A DNA stretch of 64,000 nt from Owenia fusiformis (Eukaryota; Annelida; Polychaeta; Sabellida; Oweniidae), in NCBI GenBank assembly GCA_903813345.2, contig CAIIXF020000006.1, forward strand, positions 24,249,936-24,313,935. Direction: 5' to 3'. Below are positions 8,901 through 14,900 of this stretch, piece by piece. The notes under the pieces were generated by a model, which ran no database searches, was not told the DNA's origin, and saw only the letters and a list, made by a program, of their open reading frames with translations. Positions within the stretch are counted from its first letter, which is position 1; every line of letters begins with the position of its first letter. A program made the position numbers and the translations under genes.

Positions 8901-11900
8901 CCTCAATATTCCTTGAATTTTATGAAGCGCAATGGACGCTTATTAAGGGGTTGGCACAAAATACAGAGAATATGGTAAAAACTGTTTTCCTTCTAAAGAT
9001 GTGAAAAATTAAATCCCTGGTATAAGAAAGCTATCGAAATATAGCCTTTCCAAACGGATCATTTTTTGGACCACCCTGTACATGTATATAAATCAAAACA
9101 TGTTAAAGACATTAAGTTAAGACATAACAGTGCAGTAATGAAGCAAACTAAAATCAGCTAAAAGCATAGAGTAATCAAAGGGGAGAAGGCTCAAATCAGC
9201 CATAAATGACAATATTATGTGCTCCAAATAAGAAATAAGCTATAAGTAGGCTATTAGTAGGGTAGTCTTAAGTGAATGGCTAAAAGCATCAAGTTCATAA
9301 AAGCTTGTTCTGCATATTTCAAAGTCAAAGGAAGAGTGAATCAGTGGCACATGAGACACATTTGCTTCAATTCTTATTCTAATATTGCAAGAATTAAAAA
9401 AGAATCAGATCTTGATCGACTACGTTGAACAAAAAAACAATTTTTAGAATACATTTGGTTCATATCATTCCTTGTCATGTCTTTATTCTAAAAATCCCCC
9501 AGGACACTCCCTACAGATCTGATTCTGCCTTAAATGCAATAATAGGAGCTTAAATATGATTTTCTCTCAGGATTCACTGAGACAAAGAAGGTGTTTTGGT
9601 GTTAATATACAATGGGCGCAAAGATTCTGAAAATGGAAATCGAGGCAAAATTGAAGCAAAAATCACAAAATGCACATATGATAATACATATCAATAGACT
9701 TGCCACAATTCTTTGTAAATTGTAATGCTTGAAAAAATGAATTCACCAAATTGAAGAATTGTGACAAATCAAAGTATTCATATAAAAACCAGGGTCCCAT
9801 TGCTCAAACTTTTTTACTTAATTTGAGAAACTGAACCCTGTGCAACTAATAAGTGAAGAACAAAACATGAAAATGAATGTAACAGTGAACATGAGAACCA
9901 GTAACCAGTCTAACATTATGGTGAACTTTTTTGTGAATATTTCACCATAAATGTAAACTGCTTTAAAGTCTAGGCTTGGTAGATGGAGAAAACAGTATTC
10001 CTTTTGAATATACAAATGGTACCATTCGTTGGGGTTACCTAATGTTGATTCTTTAGATTTCTCCAAAATAAAAAGATGGGATAACAGACAGATGGACAGA
10101 CGGATGAGTAGGTGATTCAATAGCCCAGCATGTAAGCAAAAAACAATAGTGGTTTTGATCAAGAACAAATTTAACAAGATTGATCAAGCCTTGACTCGTG
10201 TTTCTAAGAACTCTCAGGATTGGAAATGTAGTGTCATAATATCAGAATGCATTATTTGTTATAAAATTGCAGTCACCTTATTTCTAGTTTTAGATAAGTA
10301 TAAAAGCTCTGCCCCTCCCATGTTCAATTTGCTGGATTATTTGACATTTTGACACATTTCTTAAAGAGTGGTTGCAAACTAAGAATAAGGCATTTACATG
10401 CAAAATGTCACCACCTGCCATTTGTCACACTCACTGAACCCCAAAAATCAACCATCCAACAATGTCTACAAAGAGGATGGAGACTATTAACAATATGTCA
10501 GCACTTGTGGTGGCGACATAAGTATTCCTTAAAAGGTAACATTTCAATTAATTTGCATTCACTCTTAGATTTCTACTCAATACGACAAACACTCAACAAA
10601 CAACAGTAACAAGAAAGGTTAATGTAATGAAAAGTTCAGCCTTGAGTACCAGCTCATAATCACATGTACCAGGGATGTCCCAGAAGTTTTGAGATATAAA
10701 TTCAACTTATTTTTAATTGCCTAGAGGCCGTTTCTTCGAATACCAGATCATAATCTCATATACAAGGGGTGCCTCAGAAATTTTGAGAAATTATACAATG
10801 TATTGTTCATTACCATAGAGGCTGTTTCTTCAAATCAATGTGATATATATGATTCATGAAAGCCAATATTTTTACGATATTCTCATTTTTACAGAAATCA
10901 TTCATCACAATTTATCTAAGAAAAAGCCTTCTGTTATATTGAAAAATTTTTGGTTAAAAAATATAAATTGTCAGAAATGAAGCAGCTAAGGAACAAAAGA
11001 GCTTAAAATATTTCTAGCCAAACATGTCATTAACAGTTATTCATTACTAATTTCCAGTAACTTTTGAAACACCCTTCATATTTATTCTACTCAATGTAAC
11101 TTTCAGGCACTATCCCCTAATGTTGGAATAATTTTCTTAAATTTCAATAGGCCTACAACAGAGTGAGATATCACTGTGAGCCTTGATAATCAATCCCCCA
11201 CCATTGTGATACAATATATTGTGATACATATATTGTACATATTATGATACAAGCCTCTGTACTCAAAACTTGTTATTTTCTTACATATGAGTGACGCCAA
11301 AACAAGAAAATATCATGAAGATCAGTGCTTGTATGAAATAGTAGATAATCCCTCCATTCTTCCCAGTCTATTGTCAGAGAGCCATCACGGTCCATTCTAG
11401 GATACAAAGTTAGGATATTAGTTCAGCGCTGGACAACATAGGGACCTATTCAAGCATTATTTGTGAAGAGGGCTATACTGTATAAGTGGTAATTTTGCCT
11501 AATCATTTAATTTGCCTATTTCCTAATTTTTGCCAGGTTCGGAAAATTAAATGTCGGAAATATTGTCTTATAATGTTATCCAATGGGAGGTTTCTTGTCA
11601 TTAGGAAAATGATGAAATTTGACCATTCGGAAAATTAACCACTCGGATTAAATACCACTTATACAGTATGCTCAGAGGATAGGGCAGGGGTCAGAGGAAG
11701 GTGTCTTCTTTTCCCAGGTCCCATATAAATATATTTGGGAGTCTTCTGTAGTAGAAAATAAGTTAGATTCAAGGGTAAGGTAGGGCTCTAGGGAAGTATA
11801 TAGTATATTCTATCCCGCAACTCATCCAATCTCGTGTTAAACATCACCAGGGACTCGTTTCTTCATGTCAATTATAGCATAGCATATAGCACATTAACTT

Positions 11901-14900
11901 GTGCTATGTAGTATCAGGACACAACTTGATTTGCTATGAACAGTATTAAGCTGATAAAGCTCATTCCACTGAACAGGTAAAAATCCTGAAACTAAAAAGC
12001 AGGTTTCTTATGCCACACAGCAGGGTTCTCAATACCAGCATGCAACACTGGTATTTCACTCCCAGCATGCAGCACTTACAATGGAGTGTCGCCAATATCG
12101 CAAAATCTCGTCTACTTCAGAATATGGATGGAATTGAAAGTAGTCCCGAAATTCGGTCCAATCAATATTTAACGATCCATCTATGTCTAGTCTGAGAAAA
12201 AAGAATATAAATACCTGTATTAGATAAAACATGGCATGACATCAAAATCTCAATAGAAGCCTATCTCTGAATGAAGTATGGTTGCCACTTTGCAAAATTC
12301 AATACTTACTCGAACACATCAAACCCCTTTTGTGGATCCTCAGACCATTTACCTGAGAGGAATTTTACTATTTCTAGTATGATAAATGGCTAACTATCAA
12401 ACCATAATAGATTCAATCGATGGCCTGTAGTCATAGATTTTCATTATTTATTCTGCTGCACATCTAAAATCTAAACTCTAAATTATACATCATAGCAAAA
12501 GGAGGTAAAACTTAAGATATAAATAGAGGAAGGTAGTTAGAAGCAAAGACAACACTGCATAGAACAGAAAGCAGAAAACCCAGCTTTAAATATTATATGA
12601 TTGAGAATACTTCAATCGATGTATCATTTAATAATAGCTGGGATATAGGGAGAGTCTTTGTTAGCGTGCTAGCCCAGGGTATCTACCTCTACCTATCAAG
12701 CATGCATGCAGTTAGTCATCTAGAAGGTCATTTCTTCTGTACCATCTTTCTCAAATGAAAACAATAGAAAATTAAAACTTAACTTAGGATCAATCAATTA
12801 TATGTTAAATCCAAACCAATTAATTATATGTCAGTCAATTTTTATTTTCAAATGAGCATGGACTTCTAAAATGACCTTACATCGTGCAATGTTTTGGGTT
12901 AGGGGTGTATGACATGGCGTACACCATTACATGGCGTATCTCTAGATGGAAGTGGCGTATAGCCTAATACATACTGTAGCGTGACGCCAGTAGTGTAGGA
13001 TTTCCTGGAGATCATGGTATGATCCTGGATAGAGGATTAAATATTGCCGCCACTCGTTCCAATCTACTTTTAACGTTTTATCCATGTCCATCCTAGAGGT
13101 GTAAGGTAAACATAATGCTGTGACATCACATATGATGACATCACATATGATGACATCACATAATGATGTGACATCACATATGATGCTATGACATCAAACA
13201 TGATGCAATGACATCCCATTCATGATATGACATCAAAAGGATTATAAAGATGCTTAATAATGGGCTTTCAATTAGAAGGGTATGCAACTCTGTGTAATAA
13301 CATGAGACCTTCAAAATGAGCAATGCCATGCTTCCCTTTTATGCGTAATATTTCAAAAAATATTAGATAAATGTATATGTTTTAATATTTTTTTGATTAA
13401 AAATCAATTTTCAATAGGATTAAAGTATAAAATATATTTAATCCCATGTAAAAGTAAACAAAAAAGACCAATAAGAATAAGAGGTATCAAGATGTTCTCT
13501 TCAAGTATTGCATTGTGGGTAATTATTCAACAACACATTCCAATAAAAACATAATTTGTGGGAGAATGTTCACTTTCTGTATTGTCATAATTATGATGAA
13601 TTTCATTTTTTATTAAATTATCAACATATATGTAGATCATCATGCTTTTATTTTTGAGTTATTTCTCTTAATCATCCATAAAAAGTACAAAATAAGATTT
13701 TCTTGGAATGTGTACATTCTCAAATTTTGAAAACCCAAAGGCAATGCTTATGTATGAAATATGGGAAGTTGCCTACCCTTCTAGTTGCTAGTTGAAAGCC
13801 CATGATAAAAACAAGTATGATACAAGAACACAAATGTGTACAAAATGTCCCCACCAATGGGTGATCCCATCAAATGGTTATCCTGAAAATGAGTAGACAA
13901 GACTTCACTGACAAAATTTGAGGACGGAGAGTCCAAAATGGCCGCCTTAAATTTTACCCAGAATCCCCAAAAATTAGCTAGTTCTAGATTTTCATACTAA
14001 GAACCACCCCTGAAAATTTGAAATTGATCCGTCAAACAGTTAAACAAGACTTTACAGACAAGATTTTAGGATGGGAAATCCAAAATGGCTGCCTTGACAT
14101 TTATTCAGAATGTCAAAAAACTAATCAGTTCTAGATTTTCATACTAAGAATCATCCCTGAAAAGTTAAAATTGATCTACTTAACGGTTCACCTGAAAATG
14201 CGTAGACAAGACTTTACAGACAAGATTTTAGGACAGAAAATCCAAAATGGCTGCCTTGACATTTACCCAGAATGCCAAAAAACTAATCAGATCTAGGTTT
14301 TCATACTAAGAATCATCCCTGAAAATTTGAAATTGATCTAACAAACGGTTCACCTGGAAATGCGTAGACAAGACTTTACAGACAAGATTTTAGGACAGAA
14401 AATCCAAAATGGCTGCCTTGACATTTACCCAGAACGCCAAAAAAACTAATCAGATCTAGATTTTCATACTAAGAATCATCCCTGAAAATTTGAAATTGAT
14501 CTACCAAACGGTTCACCTGGAAATACGTAGACAAGACTTTACAGACAAGATTTTAGGACGGAAAATCCAAAATGGCTGCCTTGACATTTACCCAGAACGC
14601 CAAAAAACTAATCAGATCTAGATTTTCATACTAAGATTCATCCCTGAAAATTTGAAATTGATCTACCAAACGGTTCACCTGAAAACGTGTAGACAAGACT
14701 TTACAGACAAGATTTTAGGACGGAAAAAACCAAAATGGCCGACAATAAAAAAGTGATTATGAGTTTTTGCTGATTTCCTTTTACAAAATTATCACATATA
14801 ACTACTGTTAACAATAACATAGGCTTTTTCAACAAAGTACACCTGAAATTATTTATAAAGCTACTAAATAGTTAAAGTATGAAAACTCAAAAACACCATT

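What the first reader, a model, noticed from the sequence alone, without database searches (positions are those of the whole stretch)
11285..13092. Three tandem, mutually exclusive exons for EF-hand 4 and the gating linker of one SCaMC carrier
Three separate GT-AG-bounded blocks encode the same protein segment with clear divergence ([16 protein letters not shown] and WRQYLILY versions). All enter and leave in the same phase, and all keep the Asp1, Asp3, Asp9 and Glu12 Ca2+ ligands. Each is 1 mod 3 in length, so joining two breaks the frame: exclusivity is built in. The neighbouring exon ends in AA, and every version supplies a third base giving Lys. One gene could therefore make carriers whose Ca2+ switch and linker helix differ, instead of using several paralogues as vertebrates do.
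Basis: partly seen in the sequence, partly recalled or inferred. Interest (0 to 1): 0.88.

Follow-up and report, generated by a model that had tools for sequence, protein, structure and literature searches.

The report
Three interchangeable calcium-switch exons, mitochondrial carrier
One animal gene for a calcium-controlled mitochondrial ATP carrier holds three alternative versions of the exon that encodes its calcium switch, and a sister gene holds two, so these genes can probably build carriers with differently tuned switches.

Summary
On the minus strand lies a complete 10-exon SCaMC (ATP-Mg/Pi carrier) gene, with three GT-AG exons A/B/C (118, 112, 112 nt; all 1 mod 3, phase 2 in, phase 0 out) at the place of one. 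Each gives an intact 470-472-aa protein; skipping all three, or joining two, hits a stop. The copies are 46-51% identical in protein, nearly saturated at synonymous sites and conserved at codon position 2: old and protein-constrained. In human APC1 numbering the exon spans I134-T170: EF4 loop, ERD-clasp, pocket-1 cap and the 'locking pin' helix, i.e. the part that moves when Ca2+ switches the carrier. New here: the same genome has a second SCaMC gene with two such exons, same site, phase and (for B, C) length. So 'one gene instead of paralogues' is wrong, but the claim is otherwise stronger. Best reading: mutually exclusive exons that retune the Ca2+ switch; the anatomy resembles CaV2 exons 37a/37b. 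Expression, exclusivity and Ca2+ response are untested, and no other species could be compared. Two UGCAUG boxes behind exon B are a post hoc lead to Rbfox control. A second TM1-like segment downstream might give an EF-hand-less carrier.

The parts
30146..30307 (-). SCaMC exon 1, from the first in-frame Met ([10 protein letters not shown]..), EF-hand 1; the start codon is an inference
   Evidence: gene model; tblastn with recalled human SLC25A24
26854..26980 (-). exon 2, EF-hand 2 and start of EF-hand 3
16613..16700 (-). exon 3, rest of EF-hand 3 and E helix of EF-hand 4; ends in AA before GTAAGT (phase 2)
12975..13092 (-). alternative exon A (118 nt): [42 protein letters not shown]4 loop and locking pin, two-residue insert before the pin, clasp Asp149 replaced by Gln
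12080..12191 (-). alternative exon B (112 nt): [38 protein letters not shown]; pocket-1 cap Leu152 replaced by Gln
11285..11396 (-). alternative exon C (112 nt): [38 protein letters not shown]; keeps the human clasp and cap residues
6144..6302 (-). exon 5, linker loop and TM1 (IIDIGD..KVLLQ); joined to exon 3 directly it gives AAA TAA TAG
2802..5358 (-). exons 6-10 (5358-5206, 4976-4866, 4307-4140, 3736-3589, 2986-2802), rest of the carrier domain
   Evidence: three Mito_carr stretches in the joined protein
12039..12071 (-). two UGCAUG (Rbfox-type) boxes starting at intron bases 9 and 36 behind exon B, the second partly paired in a predicted stem-loop; a lead only, found post hoc
5778..6086 (-). 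candidate alternative exon: second copy of TM1 (5867-5778, [30 protein letters not shown]) with an open frame upstream and in-frame ATGs at 6086 and 6068; possible EF-hand-less isoform

Best explanation
A, B and C are old, functional, mutually exclusive alternative exons of a Ca2+-regulated mitochondrial ATP-Mg/Pi carrier (SCaMC/APC, SLC25A23-25 type). Each mature mRNA takes exactly one. Shown here: position, phase, intact frames, protein-level constraint, the stops that follow skipping or double inclusion, and a second SCaMC gene with a two-exon version. Inferred: the choice is made by tissue-specific splicing (weak donors under control of trans factors, possibly Rbfox for exon B), with frame and nonsense-mediated decay as back-up. 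Inferred from published human APC1 work: since the exon carries the EF4 loop, the clasp, the pocket-1 cap and the locking-pin helix, swapping it changes how firmly the pin sits in the EF3/4 cleft with Ca2+, or in the carrier cavity without Ca2+. So it should shift the Ca2+ threshold or the leak of adenine-nucleotide import, without touching the substrate-transport domain.
For: Exon bounds and phases; complete gene and intact frames with each exon; identity as SCaMC (PDB 4N5X SCaMC-1 E 1.9e-52; 3 Mito_carr and 2 EF-hand_7 stretches). Codon-position differences in 37 codons (A's two extra codons left out), pos2 vs pos3: A-B 7 vs 22 (Fisher p 7e-4), A-C 8 vs 19 (0.015), B-C 9 vs 23 (0.002), P1-P2 8 vs 23 (8e-4); NG86 dS undefined (saturated) in 7 of 10 pairs of the five copies and 2.0, 2.6 and 27 in the rest. 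Sister gene with two 112-nt exons at the same site and phase. Skip-all gives a stop in the next codon in both genes. Donors of A, B, C score 0.14, 3.16, 2.17 against 5.3-8.6 for the four constitutive donors scored (26854, 16613, 6144, 5206; four other donors were not scored; weight matrix recalled). Residue roles from PMC5369052 (passages) and PMC6283063 (sections 5 and 6).
Against: No transcript evidence at all: use of each exon and exclusivity are inferred. One genome only, no related species to show conservation. Weak donors can also mean unused exons: P1 scores -0.04 and P2 -2.62 (69th percentile of all GTs of the window's minus strand). Stops after double inclusion are expected often by chance in about 37 out-of-frame codons. 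The search for competing base-pairing gave nothing clear over shuffles. The C-P1 codon-position contrast is not significant (p 0.16); the pairs are not independent and p values are uncorrected.
Confidence: 0.83

Rival explanations
1. Only one exon (most likely C, with all the human clasp and cap residues) is used; the others are remnants of old duplications.
For: No RNA evidence for any. Donor of A scores weakly (0.14). C keeps clasp and cap residues.
Against: All three have intact frame, AG/GT borders and the right phase at near-saturated synonymous divergence; position-2 conservation in each of the three pairs. Remnants of that age should be broken. The sister gene repeats the pattern.
Confidence: 0.06
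2. The array mainly sets gene output: unproductive joins (none or two exons) feed nonsense-mediated decay and the protein differences matter little.
For: Skipping gives an immediate stop in both SCaMC genes; double inclusion stops within 10 codons.
Against: One exon plus stops would do for that; three constrained but diverged protein versions are not needed. Some differences fall on residues that matter for switching in human APC1 (with PMC5369052, passages).
Confidence: 0.09
3. Assembly artefact, or exons of separate nested gene copies.
For: None found.
Against: The three copies are only 46-51% identical in protein, so not haplotype or assembly duplicates. The tblastn of the whole carrier shows no second copy of the neighbouring exons apart from the TM1-like segment and the expected cross-matches among the three carrier repeats.
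Confidence: 0.02

Closest known systems
CaV2 channel exons 37a/37b (EFa/EFb), CACNA1A/B/E
   Different: Plasma-membrane channel; that EF-hand-like domain is said to act as a transduction element rather than bind Ca2+ directly; two exons, not three; here the exon also carries the self-inhibitory helix
OGDH exons 4a/4b
   Same: Mitochondrial energy-supply enzyme whose Ca2+ sensitivity is chosen by mutually exclusive exons; exon 4b encodes an EF-hand-like DxDxD site (PMC7969005, abstract and passages; PMC9177970, passages)
   Different: Matrix enzyme; one version is Ca2+-insensitive, here all three keep the Ca2+ ligands; exclusivity there by distant branch points that restrict the intron length, here introns are 783 and 683 nt
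ACTN1/ACTN4 EF-hand exons
   Same: Tandem exons replacing part of an EF-hand, mutually exclusive (PMC9177970, PMC9741552, passages)
   Different: Cytoskeletal protein; only one version keeps Ca2+ binding
SLC25A3 exons 3A/3B (mitochondrial phosphate carrier; the name 3B is recalled)
   Same: Mutually exclusive exons in an SLC25 carrier (PMC5740500, passages)
   Different: The carrier has no EF-hand domain (recalled), so a different part is swapped
C. elegans unc-32 exons 4a-4c and 7a-7b
   Same: A three-exon and a two-exon exclusive set; RBFOX proteins and a UGCAUG element choose exon 7a (PMC3585155, passages)
   Different: V-ATPase subunit; RBFOX control is shown there for the pair, only suggested here
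Mammalian SCaMC-1/2/3 and SLC25A41; Drosophila SCaMC (CG32103)
   Same: Same carrier family; mouse SCaMC-1 also has 10 exons (PMC3391283, passages). CG32103 is listed among fly genes with insulin-responsive splice junctions, type not stated in the passage seen (PMC2687788)
   Different: Mammalian diversity is described as paralogues and splice variants (PMC6283063); no tandem EF4 exons are mentioned in the passages seen

Membership tests
SCaMC / ATP-Mg/Pi carrier (SLC25A23/24/25) | N-terminal four-EF-hand domain related to human SCaMC-1 | tested here: met
   4N5X E 1.9e-52 over residues 11-190; EF-hand_7 two stretches
SCaMC / ATP-Mg/Pi carrier (SLC25A23/24/25) | Three mitochondrial-carrier repeats | tested here: met
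   Mito_carr 3 stretches, E 2e-77
SCaMC / ATP-Mg/Pi carrier (SLC25A23/24/25) | Amphipathic locking-pin helix with Trp166 | tested here: met
   Trp166 in 5 of 5 copies of this genome; hydrophobic or aromatic residue at 159, 162, 163 and 165 in 5 of 5
SCaMC / ATP-Mg/Pi carrier (SLC25A23/24/25) | Ca2+-stimulated ATP-Mg/Pi exchange | not testable with these tools
   needs reconstitution
Mutually exclusive exons (criteria seen in PMC5740500 passages: sequence similarity, similar length, reading frame conservation, junction reads) | Sequence similarity between neighbouring exons | tested here: met
   A-B 17/37, A-C 17/37, B-C 19/37 identical residues
Mutually exclusive exons (criteria seen in PMC5740500 passages: sequence similarity, similar length, reading frame conservation, junction reads) | Similar length and same phase | tested here: met
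   118/112/112 nt, same phases
Mutually exclusive exons (criteria seen in PMC5740500 passages: sequence similarity, similar length, reading frame conservation, junction reads) | Joint inclusion breaks the frame (here also no inclusion) | tested here: met
Mutually exclusive exons (criteria seen in PMC5740500 passages: sequence similarity, similar length, reading frame conservation, junction reads) | Junction reads from each exon to both neighbours | not testable with these tools
   no RNA data
Ca2+-binding EF-hand loop (PROSITE pattern quoted in PMC6283063) | Acidic ligands at 1, 3, 9, 12 | tested here: met
   A, B, C and P1 yes; P2 of the sister gene has Ser at 9
Ca2+-binding EF-hand loop (PROSITE pattern quoted in PMC6283063) | Full strict pattern | tested here: not met
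   not matched by any of the 5 copies, nor by the 3 recalled human EF4 loops; with position 6 left free all 8 match. Human APC1 EF4 nevertheless holds Ca2+ in the crystal structures (PMC6283063)

The most novel reading that the evidence does not exclude
In this animal both ATP-Mg/Pi carrier genes use interchangeable locking pins: tissue-specific splicing, with Rbfox selecting exon B in excitable tissue, sets at what Ca2+ level mitochondria load adenine nucleotides. The same window gene also makes an ungated, EF-hand-less carrier from an alternative TM1 exon, so one locus covers gated, retuned and ungated carriers.
Probability: 0.22. Interest if true: 0.75.

Novelty: new member of a known kind. 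Interest (0 to 1): 0.56.

Why it matters
The exon borders coincide with the part of the protein that human work identified as the moving switch (clasp, cap, locking pin). Nature would thus have made three natural variants of the pin on one unchanged transport domain, plus two in a sister gene: a ready set of constructs to test how pin affinity sets the Ca2+ threshold of mitochondrial adenine-nucleotide import. It would also add a Ca2+-regulated mitochondrial carrier to the known Ca2+ sensors tuned by exclusive exons.

Tried and rejected
Competing RNA base-pairing (docking site and selectors) as the way exclusivity is enforced: the best duplexes lay within the range of six block-shuffled controls in all three set-ups (for the intron upstream of A against all three selectors, 1 of 6 shuffles reached the observed value); not supported, not excluded. 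Incompatible splice-site classes: A, B, C and P1, P2 all have GT-AG borders; no sign of a U2/U12 mix, judged by eye. Steric block by a very short intron: introns are 783 and 683 nt. Recent tandem copy or assembly error: excluded by divergence. More copies or ghost exons: none in the window or in L001/L002, next profile hit E 0.6.

History of the copies: the tree of 37 columns puts A with P1 and P2 (69/75), and B and C with the human ones; no inner branch is well supported, and A+B+C as one clade is not rejected (AU p 0.167). So whether the arrays arose once or twice is open.

Rbfox lead, limits: the words TGCATG, GCATG and TGCTTGC and later TGTGT and CTAAC/ACTAA were counted after seeing the sequence. 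The two boxes sit in a repeated TGCATGCTGG word, and TGCATG ranks only sixth of the seven hexamers that occur at least twice in that 100 nt (p 4e-4 before any correction). The minus strand of the window has 20 TGCATG, the plus strand 11; 79 of 63,940 60-nt windows of the minus strand hold two, in just two places, both in introns flanking exon B. Of the ten 100-109-nt flanks of the five exons, eight hold none. The fetched 20 kb of the sister locus hold 8 boxes, one starting 13 nt before P2. The stretch behind exon B folds with z -3.59, with part of the second box paired, but that behind exon C has z -2.85 too; behind A z -0.66. The Rbfox-like match in the genome runs over a TAG, probably an exon end.

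Related sequences elsewhere: viral contigs gave 7 pattern matches, none a relative; genome contigs, phages, plasmids and E. coli records were not scanned, being prokaryotic or viral by description, and metagenome scans are capped at 0. COX1 was sought to place the species and not found. No structure was predicted, because spliced proteins do not read letter for letter from the DNA. Papers with both 'mutually exclusive exons' and 'mitochondrial carrier' (6 papers): three opened in passages, none about SCaMC; three not opened.
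Full report
What is there. The window (G000:C6:24249936-24313935 of an unnamed 498-Mb, 525-contig assembly) carries on its minus strand a complete SCaMC gene. Ten exons, 30307-30146, 26980-26854, 16700-16613, one of A/B/C, 6302-6144, 5358-5206, 4976-4866, 4307-4140, 3736-3589 and 2986-2802, join without a break into 470 aa with B or C and 472 aa with A. The best solved relative is the regulatory domain of human SCaMC-1 (4N5X, E 1.9e-52), and Pfam gives three carrier repeats and two EF-hand-pair stretches. 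A paper on mouse SCaMC-1 also gives 10 exons (PMC3391283, passages).

The three exons. A 13092-12975, B 12191-12080, C 11396-11285 lie between AG and GT; lengths 118, 112, 112; all enter in phase 2 and leave in phase 0. Identities in protein are A-B 17/37, A-C 17/37, B-C 19/37, about the same as each has to the recalled human SLC25A24 segment (18, 18 and 20 of 37). All 10 pairs of the five copies (three here, two in the sister gene) differ more at codon position 3 than at position 2; the contrast reaches p < 0.05 in 9 of 10 (Fisher, uncorrected, pairs not independent; C-P1 p 0.16; A's two extra codons were left out). NG86 dS is undefined (saturated) in 7 of 10 pairs and 2.0, 2.6 and 27 in the others; dN is 0.33 to 0.53. 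The copies are thus old and constrained as protein.

Exclusivity. Skipping all three gives AAA TAA TAG at the junction 16613/6302. A+B stops at codon 10 of B, A+C and B+C at codon 4 of C. Stops in about 37 out-of-frame codons are common by chance; the immediate stop after skipping is less so, and it recurs in the sister gene (AGA TGA, taking AG|GTAAGA as the donor of its exon 3). Donors of A, B, C score 0.14, 3.16 and 2.17, against 5.33 to 8.64 for four constitutive donors of this gene; P1 and P2 score -0.04 and -2.62 (the matrix is recalled, so only the ranking counts). Weak donors fit regulated exons, but would fit poorly used ones too.

The sister gene. At G000:C3 a second SCaMC gene on the plus strand, of which EF-hand exons, TM1, TM2 and part of TM3 were seen (L001, L002), has two EF4 exons, P1 (L001 9625-9736) and P2 (L002 2138-2249), both 112 nt, same phases, 2.5 kb apart. 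Two genome searches, each with one copy as query, list the same five places. A tree of the 37 residues groups A with P1 and P2, weakly (69/75), and does not reject A+B+C as a clade (p 0.167).

What the exon encodes. In human APC1 numbering it runs from I134 to T170 (numbering fixed by R148/D149, L152/F153 and I159-W166 as given in PMC5369052 and PMC6283063; passages and sections 5-6). It holds the EF4 loop, Arg148 and Asp149 of the ERD-clasp, Leu152/Phe153 that cap pocket 1, and the locking-pin helix with Trp166 and Lys167. Loop positions 1, 3, 9, 12 are Asp, Asp, Asp, Glu in A, B, C and P1; P2 has Ser at 9. Differences fall on switch residues: clasp Asp149 is Gln in A and Glu in P2; cap Leu152 is Ile in A, Gln in B and P2, Gly in P1; A has two extra residues before the pin; Lys167 is Arg in 5 of 5, Trp166 kept in 5 of 5. 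In the human protein, clasp residues and the N-terminal part of the pin stabilise the active state, and W166, K167, D176 and E183 behave as part of the Ca2+-free inhibited state (PMC5369052). So the exon is close to a self-contained switch module.

How it most likely works. One exon is chosen per mRNA, by cell type; frame and probably decay remove mistakes. The three proteins share substrate site and EF1-3 and differ in how the pin is held and released. I expect different Ca2+ thresholds or leak rather than a Ca2+-blind form. All of this after the anatomy is inference.

Possible control. Two UGCAUG boxes start at bases 9 and 36 of the intron behind exon B; the only other close pair on this strand of the window lies in the intron between A and B. 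An Rbfox-like RRM exon (80% over 35 residues, the match running over a TAG) is in the genome. In C. elegans unc-32, RBFOX proteins and a UGCAUG element choose between exclusive exons (PMC3585155, passages). The lead was found post hoc and rests on a repeated 10-base word; a base-pairing model was not supported.

A second oddity. Behind exon 5 the frame stays open to 5778 and ends in another TM1 (22/30 identical to the first; codon-position differences 11/3/18 of 30, Fisher p 9e-5), with a donor in the right phase for exon 6, though a weak one (0.61). The 92 codons between the normal donor and this copy are open in 11 of 5000 shuffles (the stretch was picked because it was open). In-frame ATGs at 6086 and 6068 would allow a carrier without EF-hands, like mammalian SLC25A41, which lacks the regulatory domain (PMC6283063). 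An internal exon or a long retained form is possible as well. The sister locus showed only its one TM1 in this search.

Novelty. In the held library no paper was found on exclusive exons in SCaMC genes. 'SCaMC' with 'mutually exclusive' gave one unrelated paper. 'Mutually exclusive exons' with 'mitochondrial carrier' gave six; three were opened in passages, PMC9177970, the Manila clam paper PMC9803972 and the beetle paper PMC12599511, and in none are the two terms about the same gene in the passages seen. (listings; 15 of 16, 4 of 4 and 10 of 31 shown) showed none either; none of the 12 listed of 120 papers holds both a carrier name and 'mutually exclusive exon', the other 108 were not seen. 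PMC9741552, on tandem exon substitutions in human with fly and worm comparison, has no 'SLC25' in its main text; its supplements were not read. One result the other way: Drosophila SCaMC, CG32103, is listed among genes with insulin-responsive splice junctions (PMC2687788, passage); the passage does not say what kind, so a related event in flies is not excluded. Public gene annotations were not searchable, so automatic isoform calls may exist. The kind is known (CaV2 37a/37b, actinin, OGDH, SLC25A3); the gene, the triple set and the swap of a self-inhibitory pin were not met in these searches.

Noticed in passing
6302-5778 (minus strand): Second TM1-like segment in the intron behind exon 5, in an unbroken 228-codon frame; possible alternative first exon for an EF-hand-less carrier.
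   Followed up: partly
L001 9625-9736 and L002 2138-2249 (G000:C3): Second SCaMC gene with two tandem EF4 exons; P2 has Ser at loop position 9.
   Followed up: yes
12352-12310 (minus strand): A 43-nt stretch between A and B bounded by CCTCTCAG and GTAAGT; used after exon 3 it would give AAG TAA. Possibly a poison exon, more likely chance.
   Followed up: no
about 7642-8300 (plus strand): Repetitive stretch of a short unit that reads [18 protein letters not shown]-like in all three plus frames; looks like a minisatellite in the intron between C and exon 5. Not run through the repeat finder.
   Followed up: no
11669-11475 (minus strand): Element with an exact 17-base terminal inverted repeat (ATACTGTATAAGTGGTA) in the intron just upstream of exon C, MITE-like by eye.
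   Followed up: no
59869-62631 (plus strand): Pieces of a polysaccharide lyase family 8 gene (Lyase_8_N E 2e-7, Lyase_8 E 6e-7).
   Followed up: partly
41493-42050 (plus strand): Frame with an NT-C2 domain (EEIG1/EHBP1 type, E 3.5e-9).
   Followed up: partly
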